A stretch of 58,091 bases of DNA. It comes from Alistipes sp. (GTDB lineage: Bacteria; Bacteroidota; Bacteroidia; Bacteroidales; Rikenellaceae). A program made the translations under genes and the position numbers. Position 1 is the stretch's first letter; each line of letters starts with the position of its first letter. The notes below the pieces were generated by a model. That model worked only from the letters and a program-made list of their open reading frames with translations. It did no database searches and was not told where the DNA came from. Shown piece by piece: positions 17,259 to 22,930 of the stretch. The stretch is taken from assembly GCA_017938765.1 (NCBI GenBank), contig JAGBAX010000020.1:1-58091 (forward strand). Reading direction: 5' to 3'.

Positions 17259-17516
17259 ATGGCACACAAAAAAGGTGTAGGTAGTTCGAAGAACGGCCGT
17301 GAGTCAGAGAGCAAACGACTCGGCGTAAAGCTTTATGGTGGTCAGGTAGCGAAGGCAGGCAACATCATCGTTCGTCAGCGCGGTACTGTTCACAATCCAG
17401 GTGAGAATGTAGGTATGGGTAAGGATCACACCCTCTTCGCACTTGTAAATGGCGTTGTTGTCTTCTCTAAGAAGGCTTCTGGTAAGAGCTATGTTAGCGT
17501 AACTCCGCTTGCATAA
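17259..17516 (+). CDS. rpmA: 50S ribosomal protein bL27
   Basis: An 85-residue protein near the peptidyl-transferase centre, beginning [16 protein letters not shown] with the conserved VRQRGT and GKDHTLFAL segments. There is no Firmicutes-style cleavable N-terminal extension. It ends before a terminator at 17538-17575. Confidence 0.97.
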
Positions 17517-17537: not shown

Positions 17538-17575
17538 AAAAGCACTCTATTTTTAGGGTGCTTTTCTTATTTTTA
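17538..17575 (+). terminator. terminator after rpmA
   Basis: AAAAGCACTC (17538-17547) with GGGTGCTTTT (17556-17565) and a T-rich tail. Confidence 0.8.
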
Positions 17576-17576
17576 T

Positions 17577-17584
17577 TATCTTCG
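17577..17584 (+). promoter_or_regulatory. probable -7 box of the S1/P1 nuclease operon
   Basis: TATCTTCG, one mismatch to TAnnTTTG, 22 nt before the first nuclease gene and directly after the rpmA terminator. Confidence 0.45.
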
Positions 17585-17606: not shown

Positions 17607-18383
17607 ATGAAAAGAACCATTCTTTCCCTGTTGCTTACAGTTATAGCAACGGGTACTCTTTGGGCATGGGGCGGACAGGGACACTCTACTGTCGCCTACA
17701 TCGCAGAGAAGCATCTTACGCCACGCGCAAAGGCTAATATCGAGAGCTATCTAAATGGCCGCTCTATCGTCTACTACGCTGCATGGATGGATTTTAACAG
17801 AACAGACCCACCTATGGATGTCACTCGTGACTGGCACGTAGATTATTGGACAGACGATATGCGTACTGATGCCAATGGCAACCCAGCGCCACCTTGCTCG
17901 GTATCTCAAATTAAGCGAATTGTCTCTGAAATGGGCGACTTCCGAACTCTGAGCGACTCGCTTGTTACTATCAACATCAAGTACCTCACTCACCTTGTGG
18001 GCGATATGCACTGCCCTGTACATATTGACTTCCCGACCTCTCGTCCGATGAAGGTTAAGGAGGGCAAGACAACCATTAAGGTGCACAAGATGTGGGATGG
18101 TCGCGTGCTTGACAGTAAGCACAATGGTCTCTCTCCACAGCAGATGGCAATTGAGCTTGACCGCTACTCTGCAACTGAGATTGCCGCCTTCCAGAGTGGT
18201 ACTCCAGACGACTGGCACAACGAGTGTCTTGAGTACTCAAAGCGCGCTATTGATATGATTCCTGCCAATAATCAGGTAAGTTACGAGACTTACTTTAATA
18301 AGGTTATTGACATTGCAGAGAATCGCATTACTCTTGCAGGCTATCGTCTTGCAGCTATTCTTAACTCAATATTTGACAAATAG
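17607..18383 (+). CDS. exported S1/P1-family nuclease, paralogue 1
   Basis: Zinc-dependent nuclease and 3'-nucleotidase of the S1/P1 fold, acting on single-stranded nucleic acid outside the cytoplasm. A signal peptide (about 1-20) ends so that the mature protein begins WGGQGH. The N-terminal Trp and the His five residues later are zinc ligands in this family. The other ligand motifs are present: AAWMD, DWHVD, HLVGDMHCPVH (HxxxD plus the later His) and HKMWD (HxxxD). All expected metal sites are therefore intact. It is the first of five tandem paralogues and lies 1 bp before the next. Confidence 0.93.
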   Translation: MKRTILSLLLTVIATGTLWAWGGQGHSTVAYIAEKHLTPRAKANIESYLNGRSIVYYAAWMDFNRTDPPMDVTRDWHVDYWTDDMRTDANGNPAPPCSVSQIKRIVSEMGDFRTLSDSLVTINIKYLTHLVGDMHCPVHIDFPTSRPMKVKEGKTTIKVHKMWDGRVLDSKHNGLSPQQMAIELDRYSATEIAAFQSGTPDDWHNECLEYSKRAIDMIPANNQVSYETYFNKVIDIAENRITLAGYRLAAILNSIFDK

Positions 18384-18384
18384 T

Positions 18385-19218
18385 ATGAAGAAGTTTATAA
18401 TCATCATAGCAGCACTATGCTGTTCGCTTAGCGCCTCTGCATGGTCTCGTCACATTCACTCAGGCATTGCAGCCATAGCACACGACAACCTAACGGATGA
18501 GGCAAAAAAGAGTATCACCGAGCTTCTTGACGGCAAGAGTATTGTCTACTACGCACAACATATTTATGATTATGCCGACAACGAGGCATACAAGCACACA
18601 AAGGTGTGGAGAAATATTGCCTTTACAGACAAGAACAAGATTCTCAAGGCAAAGAAGGCAGCAAAGCACGAGCATAAGGCTATTAGCAGTGCGCTGGCAT
18701 ATGAGGGTCTTGTAAGCTCGCTGACAGCTCTGCAATCAGGCAAACTTACAAAGGAGCAGACTCGCGACAATATGCTCTGTGTTATTACAATTCTTAGTGA
18801 CCTTCACTGCCCTACCCACTATGTCTTTACAGACAACCTTGAGAAGCGCAAGAGCTACTATCACTACAACGACAAGAAGTACAGCTATATGGGTTATTGG
18901 GAGAGCAACTCTATTCGTGGTACATTCAACTGGAAGACCAATGAGTTTGTTCACCAGCTATCTCGTAAGACTCCAGAGCAGATTGCGCAGATTACAGAAG
19001 GCTCTGTAACCGACTGGATTACTGGCAACGCACCTCTCTATCGTAGCGTGTACGACCTGCTTGACACAGGCACTCGCTTTGACGGCAAATCCCTGCGCCT
19101 ATGGCAGAACAAGATTTACCCTATCTCTACCGAGCAGGTCGCAGTGGCAGGCTACCGCATTGCTGCTGTGCTCAACTCACTCTTTGACTCAAACGCTCCT
19201 CAAGTAAAAATCAAATAG
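18385..19218 (+). CDS. S1/P1-family nuclease paralogue 2, metal sites degenerate
   Basis: A 277-residue paralogue with signal peptide and mature start WSRHIH, so the N-terminal Trp and first His remain. Several zinc ligands are replaced. The HxxxD of paralogue 1 (HLVGD) is TILSD here; its second HxxxD (HKMWD) is MGYWE; the mid-protein DWH motif has no His (KVWRN). The HCPTH core and the C-terminal helix (AGYRIAAVLNSLF) are kept, so the fold is probably intact. I chose ATG 18385 over the longer upstream frame because it gives the signal peptide and a 1-bp gap. Probably a non-catalytic relative. Confidence 0.85.
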   Translation: MKKFIIIIAALCCSLSASAWSRHIHSGIAAIAHDNLTDEAKKSITELLDGKSIVYYAQHIYDYADNEAYKHTKVWRNIAFTDKNKILKAKKAAKHEHKAISSALAYEGLVSSLTALQSGKLTKEQTRDNMLCVITILSDLHCPTHYVFTDNLEKRKSYYHYNDKKYSYMGYWESNSIRGTFNWKTNEFVHQLSRKTPEQIAQITEGSVTDWITGNAPLYRSVYDLLDTGTRFDGKSLRLWQNKIYPISTEQVAVAGYRIAAVLNSLFDSNAPQVKIK

Positions 19219-19220
19219 CT

Positions 19221-20060
19221 ATGAAACGACTCATAATAACACTTACCGCAATACTTACTATCGCTGCCACTACCGAGTCTTTTGCTTGGGGTCGCGATGG
19301 TCACGCAGCAATTGCATATATTGCCGAGCGTCACCTCACACCAAAGGCAAAAGAGAACATTGAGAAGTGCATTGACGGCCGATCAATCGTCTACTACGCC
19401 TCTTGGCTTGACAACCACCGCGCCGAGCATAAATCTTGGGGCAGATTGAGCCATGTTTGTCACTACGACATTCACTCTTTTGAGGCTATAGGCAGGCCAC
19501 ACCAGTATATGAAGTCAACCATTAACAAGCTTAAGAACTATCGCGAGCTTCCAGACTCGGCTCTAAAGGTTACAATCTACCACTTTGTACACTCCTTTGG
19601 CGACTACCACTGCCCAGGCCACGTAGCACTCTATGACCGCACTGGCGAGAAGACAAAGAGAGTCCACACCTCAAGCTACGACTGCTATTTGGCGACAAAA
19701 AAGAGCCGCTGGAACTATCACAAGCTCTGGGATGCGGGCATTATACAGATTCTCCACCCAGATTGGGGATACATGGATTGGGGACATGCTTTGGACAGCT
19801 CTATTTCACAAGAGTATATTGATAGAGTTACCGCTGGCACTTGGGAGGATTGGCTGCAAGATGTGGCAAAAACCACCCATACGGTCTACAACATTTTCAA
19901 CCGCGTTCCGAAGGTTGAGAATGAGAAGGATGCACCAGACAAAGACCTCTCTGTTGTAAGCGGACAAACGCTCAATGAGTATGGTGAGTACGCAGCCGAG
20001 CAACTGCTCAACGCTGGACTTAGAATGGCAAAGATTATTAACGAAATATTTGGAGAGTAA
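19221..20060 (+). CDS. exported S1/P1-family nuclease, paralogue 3
   Basis: A 279-residue enzyme whose mature form starts WGRDGH after a signal peptide ending SFA. Ligand motifs are intact: ASWLD, SHVCHYD, HSFGDYHCPGH and HKLWD. It carries an insertion between the third and fourth motifs (around GEKTKRVHTSSYD) not seen in paralogues 1, 4 and 5. Its stop and the next start overlap by one base (TAATG), so the two are probably translationally coupled. Confidence 0.92.
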   Translation: MKRLIITLTAILTIAATTESFAWGRDGHAAIAYIAERHLTPKAKENIEKCIDGRSIVYYASWLDNHRAEHKSWGRLSHVCHYDIHSFEAIGRPHQYMKSTINKLKNYRELPDSALKVTIYHFVHSFGDYHCPGHVALYDRTGEKTKRVHTSSYDCYLATKKSRWNYHKLWDAGIIQILHPDWGYMDWGHALDSSISQEYIDRVTAGTWEDWLQDVAKTTHTVYNIFNRVPKVENEKDAPDKDLSVVSGQTLNEYGEYAAEQLLNAGLRMAKIINEIFGE

Positions 20061-20872
20061 TGAAAAGAGTTACAATTATTGCAGTGGCGCTACTTCTTCT
20101 GCCTCAAATCGCCTTTGGCTGGGGTAGATTAGGTCACAGAACTATTGCCGAGATAGCCGAGCGCAACCTTACGCCAAAGGCAAAGGCAAATATTGAGAAG
20201 TATACTGGTGGCACTCCACTGTGGAAATACTCTCTCTTTGTAGACGAGTATCGTAACCACCCAGACTACAAAAAGGCCCTTGAGGGTTTCCACGCCTCTA
20301 TTGCCGACAGTGACTGCACCTCACCACAGATTGTTCGCGACCGCTATCGTGGTGGTAAGGATGGTGTTACTGCGATGAACAACTTCCGCGACCAGCTCAA
20401 GAACTATAAGGAGCTGCCAGACTCTGTTGTTCTCTACGCCATTAAGTGTATCTCACACATCATTGCCGACTTTAACTGTCCAAGCCACGTTAGATATGTA
20501 GACAACGCAAACAAGGGGGACTTTATGGCAGTTTTCAATGGCAAGAAGGTGGGCGTACACCGCTTCTGGGACACTTGGCTCATTGAGTCACTACAGAAGC
20601 AGAGAGGTCAGAAGATAAACCACAAGCTCTATGCAGACCACCTCAACACTCTGTCAAAGAAGGAGATAAAGAACATTACCAAGGGTTGGGCGCAGGAGTG
20701 GTTTGAAGAGGCTGCACGTAGCTGCCGACCAGCAATCTACTGGATAGACAACCGCAAGATTGAGACAATGAATCAAGAGTTCCTTGACAAGGCAACTCCA
20801 CTTGTAGAGTCACAGATGCAGAAGGCGGGCTATCAGATGGCCGCAGCACTTAACGAAATATTTGGAAAGTAA
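20060..20872 (+). CDS. exported S1/P1-family nuclease, paralogue 4
   Basis: A 270-residue enzyme with signal peptide and mature start WGRLGH. Ligand motifs are intact: LFVDEY, GFHASIAD, HIIADFNCPSH and HRFWD. It is clearly closest to paralogue 5, sharing IAEIAERNLTPKAKANIE and DCTSPQI/KI, so the pair looks like a recent duplication. It is 1 bp upstream of paralogue 5. Confidence 0.92.
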   Translation: MKRVTIIAVALLLLPQIAFGWGRLGHRTIAEIAERNLTPKAKANIEKYTGGTPLWKYSLFVDEYRNHPDYKKALEGFHASIADSDCTSPQIVRDRYRGGKDGVTAMNNFRDQLKNYKELPDSVVLYAIKCISHIIADFNCPSHVRYVDNANKGDFMAVFNGKKVGVHRFWDTWLIESLQKQRGQKINHKLYADHLNTLSKKEIKNITKGWAQEWFEEAARSCRPAIYWIDNRKIETMNQEFLDKATPLVESQMQKAGYQMAAALNEIFGK

Positions 20873-20873
20873 T

Positions 20874-21680
20874 ATGAAAAAATTTGTTCTATTGCTCTCT
20901 ATCGCCTTCGCCATTCCGCAACTTGCAATGGCGTGGGGATATGTCGGACACAAAGCTATTGCCGAGATTGCAGAGCGAAATCTTACACCAAAGGCGAAGG
21001 CAAATATTGAGCGTTATACAAAGGGCACTCCTCTGCACGAGTACTCGCTCTGGATGGACGAGGTTGTGGCTACACCACCGTATAAGAGAGCCCTTGCTGG
21101 CTGGCACGCATCAATTGCCGATGTAGACTGCACAAGTCCAAAGATTATCCGCGAGCGCTATCGCAATAGCCGTGATGGTGTGACTGCTATGGAGGATTTT
21201 CGCGTTCAACTGAAGGATTATCAGTCACTTTCAGACTCAACGGTCCTTACAGCCATTAAGTGCATCGTCCACATTGTTGCCGACTTTCACTGCCCTACCC
21301 ATATGCGCTTTGTAGACCTTCATAATGAGGGCAAATACCCTGTTACATTCCTTGGCGAGCGTTGGGATTACCACGCAGTTTGGGATACCGGCATTGTTGA
21401 GGCTTACCATAAGGGTTGGGACTATAGTAAGTATGCCGACCACCTTAATACCCTTCAGAGCAAGGATATCAAGCGCATTACCAAGGGCTGGGCACAGCAG
21501 TGGTTTGAGGATAGTTGCTGTGAGGTGCGCCCTATAATCTACTGGGTAGTAAACGATGGCAAGAGAATCGAGAAACTTGATATGGATTTTGTAAACAAGT
21601 GCGGTCCATTAGCCGAGAGTCAGATGCAGAGAGCGGGCTACCGCCTTGCAGCTGCGCTGAACACAATTTTTGGCAAATAA
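20874..21680 (+). CDS. exported S1/P1-family nuclease, paralogue 5
   Basis: A 268-residue enzyme; the start at 20874 gives MKKFVLLLSIAFAI and a mature N-terminus WGYVGH. Ligand motifs are intact: LWMDEV, GWHASIAD, HIVADFHCPTH and HAVWD. It is highly similar to paralogue 4. It is followed after 23 bp by the PHP phosphoesterase gene without a terminator, so all six genes can be one transcript. Confidence 0.92.
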   Translation: MKKFVLLLSIAFAIPQLAMAWGYVGHKAIAEIAERNLTPKAKANIERYTKGTPLHEYSLWMDEVVATPPYKRALAGWHASIADVDCTSPKIIRERYRNSRDGVTAMEDFRVQLKDYQSLSDSTVLTAIKCIVHIVADFHCPTHMRFVDLHNEGKYPVTFLGERWDYHAVWDTGIVEAYHKGWDYSKYADHLNTLQSKDIKRITKGWAQQWFEDSCCEVRPIIYWVVNDGKRIEKLDMDFVNKCGPLAESQMQRAGYRLAAALNTIFGK

Positions 21681-21703
21681 TATAACCTTAAAAATAAACT
21701 AAA

Positions 21704-22879
21704 ATGAAAAAACTATTTTTTGTCCTTTTGGCACTTCTGCCAATTAGTGCATTTGCGCAGTACAATCCTGAGACCCTGCGCACAGCCGTAGCACAGCCTG
21801 CAGAGCGCGTAGAGTTTATCCTTCCAGTTGTTAATGGTTACAACATCTACAAGGCTGACCTTCACACCCACTCTATCTACTCTGATGGCGAGACTACTCC
21901 TGCCTTCCGTGTTCGTGAGGCTTACTACGATGGTCTGGACGCTATCGCTATTACCGAGCACATTGAGTATCGCCGTATTGAGGGCAAGATGCTCAAGTTT
22001 GTCAAGGGTTATACTGACGGCAAGGCTCTTAAGGCTGAGAATACAGACCTTATCCGCAACGAGATTTCCGAGCGCGGTATCCTTGCAGACCTTAACTATC
22101 CTGTAAGTGAGGCTGTTAAGGAGAGTAAGAAGTATGGTGTTCTTGTTATCCCTGGCGCAGAGATTACTCGCGAGCCAGTGAAGATTGGACACTTCAACGC
22201 TCTGTTTACAAAGGATAACAACACTATCTACGATCCAGATCCAATGGAGAGCATCAAGAAGGCTCGCAAGCAGGGCGCGCTTATCCAGCACAACCACCCA
22301 GGATGGCGTCGTACCACTTGTGCAAAGACCGAGTTTGAGAAGAAGGTCTATGCAGAGGGTCTTATTGACGGTATTGAGGTTGCCAATGGTGGCTCACTAT
22401 ACCTGCCAATCATTGACCGCGCACGCGAGGATAACCTCTTTGTTGCAGCAAATACAGATATCCACCCTACTACTGCTGAGTACTACCGTCTGAAGGGTCA
22501 GCACCGCAATATGACACTTATCTTCGCTAAGGAGTGCACTCTTAAGGGTCTGCGTGAGGCGCTGGAGGCAAAGCGTACACTTGCTTGCTCTGGCGGTTAT
22601 ATCTGCGGCGACGAGCAGCTTCTTAAGGACCTCTTCCTTGCAAGTGTTAAGTGGGAGGTTATCAGAACTGACAAGAAGGGAGTTCGCACTGTTCGCCTTA
22701 CAAATATGTGCTCATTCACATATCAGTATAAGACATCAAAGAATGCTCTGCCAGTAAACCTACTGCCATTCCAGAGCATTCAGCTCAATGTTGCTAAGGA
22801 TAAGAATCTGAACCTTACTGTTACAAGCATGCTCTGCGGTGATATGGTTCATCCAAAGGTAACCCTTGATTTGAAATAG
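21704..22879 (+). CDS. exported PHP-domain phosphoesterase
   Basis: A 391-residue protein with signal peptide (ending ISAFAQ) and a PHP metal-dependent phosphoesterase domain: DLHTHSIYSDGE, ITEHIEYR, IPGAEITRE, QHNHPGW and NTDIHP supply the usual His/Asp/Glu metal ligands in order. PHP domains hydrolyse phosphate esters such as histidinol phosphate or nucleoside 3',5'-bisphosphates and also occur in DNA polymerases. Placed last in the S1/P1 array and also exported, it plausibly dephosphorylates their products. The substrate is inferred from context only. The C-terminal third is beta-rich and unassigned. Confidence 0.85.
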   Translation: MKKLFFVLLALLPISAFAQYNPETLRTAVAQPAERVEFILPVVNGYNIYKADLHTHSIYSDGETTPAFRVREAYYDGLDAIAITEHIEYRRIEGKMLKFVKGYTDGKALKAENTDLIRNEISERGILADLNYPVSEAVKESKKYGVLVIPGAEITREPVKIGHFNALFTKDNNTIYDPDPMESIKKARKQGALIQHNHPGWRRTTCAKTEFEKKVYAEGLIDGIEVANGGSLYLPIIDRAREDNLFVAANTDIHPTTAEYYRLKGQHRNMTLIFAKECTLKGLREALEAKRTLACSGGYICGDEQLLKDLFLASVKWEVIRTDKKGVRTVRLTNMCSFTYQYKTSKNALPVNLLPFQSIQLNVAKDKNLNLTVTSMLCGDMVHPKVTLDLK

Positions 22880-22899: not shown

Positions 22900-22930
22900 A
22901 AGAGGTCGCTTGGTTAAGCGACCTCTTTTT
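22900..22930. terminator. bidirectional terminator
   Basis: AAGAGGTCGCTT (22900-22911), 4-nt loop, AAGCGACCTCTT (22916-22927), then T run. Separates the convergent PHP and methyltransferase genes. Confidence 0.9.

What the first reader, a model, noticed from the sequence alone, without database searches (positions are those of the whole stretch)
17607..22879. Five tandem S1/P1 nuclease paralogues plus an exported PHP phosphoesterase
Five consecutive genes encode signal-peptide-bearing S1/P1 nucleases, each maturing to an N-terminal Trp that is itself a zinc ligand. They are packed with gaps of -1 to 2 bp and followed after 23 bp by a secreted PHP-domain phosphoesterase. The paralogues differ in loop insertions and ligand sets, so they look specialised and not simply amplified. 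The inferred role is an extracytoplasmic nucleic acid or nucleotide degradation line in which the nucleases cut and PHP removes phosphate. A competing view is defence against incoming DNA at the envelope.
Basis: partly seen in the sequence, partly recalled or inferred. Interest (0 to 1): 0.78.

Follow-up and report, generated by a model that had tools for sequence, protein, structure and literature searches.

The report
Zinc phosphoesterases paired with dead copies
A probable gut Alistipes bacterium carries an operon of five exported S1/P1-type zinc proteins plus a PHP phosphoesterase; one of the five has lost its catalytic zinc site but is kept by selection beside a particular intact partner, a pairing that recurs in alternating gene arrays of related species and suggests two-part enzymes.

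Summary
In detail: five contiguous S1/P1 genes (17607-21680) and a PHP gene (21704-22879), conserved in relatives (18 arrays of this type compared, PHP directly downstream in 14). The family is expanded within one genus, Alistipes by inference: 22 of 101 genus genomes carry 6-23 copies, against at most 3 in 295 other genomes of the phylum. Genes 1, 3, 4 and 5 keep all nine zinc ligands; gene 2 keeps four and lacks the catalytic Asp, yet evolves under purifying selection. Among 184 family members 56 are ligand-stripped; 51 directly follow an intact copy (53 allowing one inserted gene), and elsewhere they alternate in long arrays. All 53 intact partners fall in one tree clade, and distances among stripped copies track those of their upstream, not downstream, neighbours. 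Gene 1 plus gene 2 is thus an old, co-inherited enzyme/pseudoenzyme unit. I infer a two-part periplasmic phosphoesterase working with PHP in phosphoester (perhaps nucleotide) salvage. Complex formation and substrate are untested. Residues of the canonical nucleoside pocket, including a Tyr essential in SmNuc1, are missing from all five, which argues against calling them plain nucleases. Defence is not supported. New variant of a known kind.

The parts
17259..17516 (+). rpmA (ribosomal protein L27), gene upstream of the operon; boundary only
   Evidence: ORF; name recalled from the sequence
17538..17565 (+). terminator-like hairpin between rpmA and the array
   Evidence: 12-pair stem; terminator hits in the region are near chance overall (5 found, mean 4.3 in shuffles)
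17607..18383 (+). gene 1: exported S1/P1-type protein, 9 of 9 zinc ligands; intact partner of the pair
   Evidence: AlphaFold model pLDDT 91.1 matches S1/P1 structures; lies in the clade of paired intact copies
18385..19218 (+). gene 2: exported S1/P1-fold pseudoenzyme, 4 of 9 ligands (W1, H6, D120, H126 kept)
   Evidence: model pLDDT 91.6 matches S1/P1 structures at TM 0.65-0.70 of the query; dN/dS 0.07-0.20 against five orthologues
19221..20060 (+). gene 3: exported S1/P1-type protein, 9 of 9 ligands, own clade
20060..20872 (+). gene 4: exported S1/P1-type protein, 9 of 9 ligands, same clade as gene 5
20874..21680 (+). gene 5: exported S1/P1-type protein, 9 of 9 ligands, same clade as gene 4
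21704..22879 (+). exported PHP-domain phosphoesterase, all 11 motif residues checked are present
   Evidence: (nearest solved chain 3e38, 2.2e-55)
22900..22927 (+). terminator-like hairpin after PHP
   Evidence: 12-pair stem with T-rich tail; same caution as above

Best explanation
The locus is probably one operon for exported metal-dependent phosphoesterases. Shown by computation: genes 1 and 2 are a co-inherited unit of one intact S1/P1-type protein and one zinc-site-stripped paralogue that selection maintains; units of this kind have been multiplied into alternating arrays elsewhere in the genus; genes 3, 4 and 5 are further intact lineages; PHP is a usual but not obligatory last gene. Inferred: after export the gene 2 protein works with the gene 1 protein, most likely as a physical partner that binds substrate or controls the active subunit. 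The intact proteins hydrolyse phosphodiesters or phosphomonoesters, and PHP removes further phosphate, so that phosphate and the organic part (perhaps nucleosides) can be taken up.
For: Ligand counts over 184 proteins: 127 with 9, one with 8, 56 with 1-7 (8 or more called intact). In 42 runs of two or more genes the transitions are Ad 51, dA 36, AA 35, dd 1 (A intact, d stripped); within-run shuffles give dd 13.1 on average, minimum 4 in 20,000. In 12 further runs 8 of 8 d directly follow A. Distances among d and among upstream A correlate at r 0.85 over 51 pairs; in the six largest arrays, permuting within arrays gives a mean of 0.08 and maximum 0.48 against 0.84; in 20 A-d-A triples d tracks upstream A (0.82), not downstream A (0.21). 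All 53 paired intact copies lie in one clade of 57 in the tree; a 57-row all-intact clade with the gene-1 and rluA-locus groups has support 92 with ligand columns left out, and these groups are sisters at 98/91 in IQ-TREE. dN/dS of d genes is 0.03-0.20. Loss of the catalytic Asp: D65N basically abolishes S1 activity (PMC5201275, passages seen). Salvage context: PNP_UDP_1 gene directly upstream of two S1/P1 genes in L045 and L113, calcineurin-like phosphoesterase genes beside S1/P1 or PHP genes.
Against: Duplication of a two-gene unit by itself yields alternation and mirrored distances; no complex formation was tested. Nearest-pair agreement is only 27 of 51. The clade of 57 has support 49 in the tree. 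Whether the stripped copies stem from one loss is unresolved: FastTree groups them (support 83), IQ-TREE splits them and 0 of 200 bootstrap trees unite them, the AU test does not reject unity (p 0.195). Three stripped copies of one orthologous group lack an upstream intact partner yet stay under selection. Genes 1, 3, 4 and 5 lack the canonical nucleoside-pocket motifs, including the residue matching Tyr89 of SmNuc1, which PMC11705217 calls essential for nucleolytic activity (passage seen). PHP occurs in 8 genus genomes without any S1/P1 match and is not adjacent in 4 of 18 window-type arrays.
Confidence: 0.5

Rival explanations
1. The stripped copy is an inhibitor or immunity-like partner: it holds the active enzyme inactive in the periplasm until release or until a signal.
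For: Tight pairing with a specific intact subtype and parallel divergence fit a cognate inhibitor as well as a subunit.
Against: Nothing in the stretches looked at suggests a delivered toxin (by eye); intact paralogues of other clades, with all ligands, have no such partner.
Confidence: 0.15
2. The stripped copies are independent proteins with a new job (one-metal enzyme, or nucleotide, metal or substrate binding protein) that merely share regulation with the intact gene.
For: In 19 gene-2-type proteins W1, D120, H126 and a Glu in place of D153 never vary and H6 is kept in 18; calculated pI 9.1 of the window copy; orphan copies remain under selection.
Against: Orphans are 3 of 56, one orthologous group, and divergence tracks the upstream partner.
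Confidence: 0.2
3. Plain tandem amplification with decaying spare copies.
For: Tandem families often carry dead members; array length varies strongly between species.
Against: dN/dS 0.03-0.20 for stripped copies; no internal stop in any match listed; Trp1 kept in 49 of 56 and Ala before it in 56 of 56; ordered alternation. PHP tandem arrays in the same genomes show no such stripping (66 entries, some fetched twice: 53 with all 11 residues, 12 with one change, one cut by a contig end).
Confidence: 0.05
4. An envelope defence system against incoming DNA.
For: Exported nuclease fold; copy number changes fast in some arrays.
Against: No match in PADLOC-DB for the six proteins; no relative confirmed among 43 pattern matches in viral contigs; neighbours looked at by eye are housekeeping, lipoprotein or salvage genes.
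Confidence: 0.05
5. The enzymes act on another phosphoester than nucleic acid (for example phospholipid head groups), since the fold is shared with phospholipase C.
For: Nucleoside-pocket motifs missing; gene 4 scores PF00882 (Zn-dependent PLC) at 4.9e-05, below its cut-off; phospholipase C structures come next after S1/P1 ones in the fold searches.
Against: Purine nucleoside phosphorylase family gene beside sister S1/P1 genes.
Confidence: 0.25

Closest known systems
S1/P1 nuclease family (PF02265): Aspergillus S1, P1 nuclease, plant TBN1/BFN2, Stenotrophomonas SmNuc1
   Same: Profile match, fold (genes 1 and 2 modelled), N-terminal Trp, nine zinc ligands in genes 1, 3, 4, 5.
   Different: Genes 1-5 lack the HY.N and GGN pocket motifs that SmNuc1 and the genus's core copy have; gene 2 lacks five of nine ligands; repeated enzyme/pseudoenzyme units were not found in the paper searches listed under Tried and rejected.
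PHP-like phosphoesterase 3e38 (a Bacteroides protein, recalled) and CehA/McbA metallohydrolases
   Same: PHP metal motifs; best solved match over two stretches.
   Different: NCBIfam CehA/McbA score 69.4 is under its cut-off of 80; here it closes an S1/P1 operon.
Enzyme/pseudoenzyme pairs in general (recalled)
   Same: A catalytic copy maintained next to an inactive copy of the same fold.
   Different: Not known to me for S1/P1; here the unit is repeated many times in one array.
SusC/SusD gene pairs of Bacteroidota (recalled, analogy only)
   Same: A two-gene module multiplied and diversified across a genome.
   Different: Unrelated proteins and function.

Membership tests
S1/P1 family (PF02265), by descent | Profile score above curated cut-off over the whole domain | tested here: met
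   All five, 58.2-129.4 bits against 29.5
S1/P1 family (PF02265), by descent | Fold of solved S1/P1 nucleases | tested here: met
   Models of genes 1 and 2 each give S1/P1 chains as the top 21 hits; genes 3-5 not modelled
S1/P1 enzyme, genes 1, 3, 4, 5 | Nine zinc ligands of the trinuclear site (list for SmNuc1 in PMC11705217, passage seen) | tested here: met
   Nine of nine in each
S1/P1 enzyme, gene 2 | Nine zinc ligands of the trinuclear site | tested here: not met
   Four of nine; filed as an S1/P1-fold pseudoenzyme, not as an S1/P1 enzyme
S1/P1 enzyme, genes 1-5 | Mature protein starts with the ligand Trp after signal peptide cleavage | tested here: inconclusive
   Trp follows Ala/Gly at a cut placed by eye in all five; cleavage not tested
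Canonical S1/P1 nuclease, genes 1-5 | Nucleoside-pocket residues (aromatic and Asn after the fourth ligand, GGN after the seventh) | tested here: not met
   Present in core copy L042 and SmNuc1, absent in genes 1-5; nuclease specificity is therefore not claimed
Canonical S1/P1 nuclease, genes 1-5 | Nuclease and 3'-nucleotidase activity | not testable with these tools
   Needs purified proteins
PHP phosphoesterase (PF02811) | Profile above cut-off and metal-motif residues | tested here: met
   36.7 bits against 26.4; 11 of 11 motif residues, chosen by motif from recall
CehA/McbA metallohydrolase (NF038032) | Score above NCBIfam cut-off | tested here: not met
   69.4 against 80
Anti-phage defence system | Match to a described defence family | tested here: not met
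   No PADLOC match at E 0.001 for six proteins

The most novel reading that the evidence does not exclude
Alistipes lineages, known here mostly from herbivore hindgut metagenomes, use a repertoire of two-subunit S1/P1 phosphoesterases, each an active subunit with its own cognate pseudoenzyme, multiplied in alternating arrays (up to about 20 genes) to give periplasmic enzymes with different substrates; genes 1 and 2 of the window are one old branch of such units and PHP is a downstream step.
Probability: 0.4. Interest if true: 0.8.

Novelty: new variant of a known kind. Interest (0 to 1): 0.62.

Why it matters
S1/P1 enzymes with solved structures are treated as self-sufficient. A lineage in which a specific subtype is followed by a zinc-site-stripped sister, kept by selection and multiplied as a unit, would be a clean natural system for asking what pseudoenzymes do for their active partners. 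It also bears on how gut Bacteroidota obtain phosphate and nucleosides, and warns against annotating these genes simply as nucleases.

Tried and rejected
Considered and rejected: five equal active nucleases (gene 2 is stripped); strain-specific amplification (orthologous arrays in relatives); pseudogene decay; defence and viral origin (43 pattern matches, none confirmed). Looked for residues specific to paired intact copies that could mark an interface: none at 80% in paired against 30% in unpaired. The single-origin question for stripped copies stayed open. A scan of 120 family genomes with a model of stripped copies gave at most two matches per listed genome outside the genus; of these I fetched six loci, from three other genera, and all six, like one more genus locus, are nine of nine. 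The others were not checked for ligands. One cut named record (L201, 205 aa, start missing) looked stripped only because its first two ligands are off the contig and was not counted. Paper searches: searches gave no description of S1/P1 arrays or pseudoenzyme pairs; two searches gave the structural papers. The PHP step failed because a file was missing under the expected name; redid it. Structure polls 59, 63, 64 and 68 came back unfinished before 70 and 74.
Full report
1. What is in the window. Six plus-strand genes lie head to tail between rpmA and a minus-strand methyltransferase-like gene (names recalled). Five of them, 17607-18383, 18385-19218, 19221-20060, 20060-20872 and 20874-21680, match PF02265 above its cut-off; gaps are 1, 2, -1 and 1 bp. 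After 23 bp follows a PHP gene, 21704-22879, whose best solved relative is 3e38 (2.2e-55). Terminator-like hairpins lie before gene 1 (17538-17565) and after PHP (22900-22927), with one weaker plus-strand hit inside gene 1; the scan finds about as many as shuffles do (5 against 4.3), so the operon boundaries are plausible, not proved. By eye there is a TATCTTCG at 17577-17584, one mismatch from the Bacteroidota -7 consensus TAnnTTTG as I recall it; untested.

2. Zinc ligands. The nine ligands of SmNuc1 are listed in PMC11705217 (passage seen), and in the alignment to chain 8qjl they face W21, H26, D62, H77, H129, D133, H139, H160 and D164 of protein 1 (my reading of that alignment). I use P1 nuclease numbers (W1 H6 D45 H60 H116 D120 H126 H149 D153; recalled) as labels. 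Proteins 1, 3, 4 and 5 have all nine; protein 2 reads W H Y R T D H M E, four of nine. The lost D45 corresponds by numbering (my inference) to Asp65 of S1 nuclease, whose change to Asn basically abolishes activity (PMC5201275, passages seen), and to Asp71 of SmNuc1, called essential (PMC11705217, passage seen). Protein 2 nevertheless has the S1/P1 fold: AlphaFold pLDDT 91.6, top 21 PDB hits all S1/P1 nucleases at TM 0.65-0.70 of the query; protein 1 has pLDDT 91.1 and TM 0.69-0.79.

3. Who has it. The own genome (2.1 Mb, 29 contigs, 87% complete) has 11 PF02265 genes on five contigs. In 101 genomes of the genus, including the own, 80 have at least one; 22 have six or more, up to 23 (26 when that genome was rescanned), 58 have 1-5 and 21 none (my count from its table). 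Many of these genomes are incomplete. In 295 other genomes of the phylum the most is 3, and in the other genera of the family sample the most among listed genomes is 2 (E 1e-10). One genus member (G023) has a contig of exactly the length of an Alistipes sp. An66 contig holding a match, so I take the genus to be Alistipes. Among named relatives whose title gives a source, most are ruminant or other herbivore gut metagenomes.

4. The window array is conserved. PHP follows directly in 14; L052, L092, L143 and L209 lack it. All 18 start intact, stripped, intact. In L139 the S1/P1 block is duplicated.

5. Alternation. All S1/P1 proteins found in 60 fetched loci plus the window, 184, none dropped, were scored: 127 nine of nine, one eight (called intact), 56 with one to seven (called stripped; the one with seven has F for W1 and N for D45). 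In 42 runs of adjacent same-strand genes the transitions are Ad 51, dA 36, AA 35, dd 1, and 40 of 42 runs start with an intact gene; 20,000 within-run shuffles never gave fewer than 4 dd. In G077 the last 14 S1/P1 genes of L053 alternate strictly, 16 with L130. Exceptions: three stripped copies without an upstream intact gene, all of one orthologous group that also lost Trp1, and two copies separated from their partner by one inserted gene, one of them in the own genome. In runs with a stripped gene, 51 intact genes are followed by one and 30 are not; genes 3, 4 and 5 of the window are among the 30. In a second set of 12 runs, 8 of 8 stripped copies follow an intact one. The loci were chosen for having several copies and are related, so the shuffle numbers describe order, not independent events.

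6. The pair is the unit of inheritance. Distances among intact partners and among stripped partners correlate at 0.85 (51 pairs; 2,000 permutations, maximum 0.14). In the six arrays with at least three pairs, permuting only within arrays, which keeps species and locus fixed, gives a mean of 0.08 and maximum of 0.48 against 0.84. In 20 intact-stripped-intact triples the stripped copy tracks the upstream neighbour (0.82) and not the downstream one (0.21). Nearest-pair agreement is modest, 27 of 51 (all). In the FastTree tree, rooted on the core copies, all 53 paired intact genes form one clade of 57 (node value 49) with four unpaired members; with ligand columns left out a 57-row all-intact clade with the gene-1 and rluA-locus groups has support 92. 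IQ-TREE, on 110 rows that I chose from the 334 aligned, supports the sister relation of the two partner groups at 98/91. The stripped copies are two strong clades whose unity is unresolved (FastTree one group, support 83; IQ-TREE two, 0 of 200 bootstrap trees with one; AU p 0.195).

7. Selection. Nei-Gojobori dN/dS for gene 2 against five orthologues is 0.07-0.20, for gene 1 0.03-0.12; dS is high or saturated in the distant comparisons, and three values for genes 3-5 could not be computed... for that reason the close comparisons (gene 2: 0.07-0.09) carry the weight. Stripped copies at the other locus give 0.03-0.11. Trp1 is kept in 49 of 56 and the Ala before it in 56 of 56. In 19 gene-2-type proteins W1, D120 and H126 never vary and D153 is always Glu, so a reduced metal site is possible. 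PHP paralogues, also in tandem arrays in these genomes, keep their metal residues (66 entries, some the same gene fetched twice: 53 all 11, 12 with one change, one cut), so stripping is not a general habit of tandem families here.

8. Substrate. The core copy (L042, between rho-like and dnaG-like genes, names by eye) has HYAN at the fourth ligand and GGN after the seventh, like SmNuc1 (HYVN, GGN). Genes 1-5 and the Bacteroides copies shown have other residues; the place of SmNuc1 Tyr89, called essential for nucleolytic activity, holds Val, Asn, Val, Ala, Ala in genes 1-5. The metal site is kept in four of them; the base pocket is not, so nuclease is an annotation, not a finding. For nucleotide salvage: a PNP_UDP_1 gene directly precedes two S1/P1 genes in L045 and L113, calcineurin-like phosphoesterase genes sit beside S1/P1 in L055 and L054 and beside a PHP array in L128, and a phosphoribosyltransferase gene beside a PHP array in L099. 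I picked these ten neighbours from what I saw, so this is no systematic count; three of the ten were lipoprotein-like or other genes without a salvage reading. Genomes with six or more S1/P1 have PHP in 21 of 22, the rest in 16 of 79 (Fisher p 9e-11, relatedness ignored; PHP at E 1e-20); eight PHP-bearing genomes have no S1/P1 match at all.

9. Verdict. An ordinary-looking tandem array contains a selected enzyme/pseudoenzyme unit of a kind that the genus has multiplied. The unit is well supported; the complex, the substrate and the salvage role are inferences. No description was found in the paper searches listed under Tried and rejected.

Noticed in passing
L053 and L130 (G077, contig C2): About 20 S1/P1 genes in tandem, intact and zinc-stripped copies alternating strictly over the last 16, between rluA-like and murG-like genes (names by eye).
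   Followed up: yes
L115, L118, L122, L128, L131: Separate tandem arrays of five to seven secreted PHP genes in expanded genomes, several next to a phosphofructokinase-like gene (by eye); metal residues nearly all kept.
   Followed up: partly
L044 6673-10755 (own genome, contig C26): An intact/stripped S1/P1 pair split by a 598-aa lipoprotein-like gene without Pfam match; in L102, L108, L093, L094 and L096 the two are adjacent.
   Followed up: partly
L112 10063-10872, L117 1185-1994, L121 4812-5621: One orthologous group of stripped copies without an upstream intact partner and without Trp1, still under purifying selection.
   Followed up: partly
window 18373-18401: A perfect E. coli sigma-70 consensus (TTGACA, 17, TATAAT) across the end of gene 1 and start of gene 2; Bacteroidota promoters differ, so probably chance.
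   Followed up: no
L049 5970-9000, L048 1063-4455 and 10912-13662, L057 5136-6000: Large lipoprotein-like genes (DUF6562 match in L049) flank the array in some relatives but not in the window.
   Followed up: no
   Followed up: no
alignment of 184 S1/P1 proteins, place of P0002 residue 168: A Trp directly before the lost His149 place in 45 of 56 stripped copies and 2% of intact ones (the window copy has Tyr there); possible cap of the old active site.
   Followed up: no
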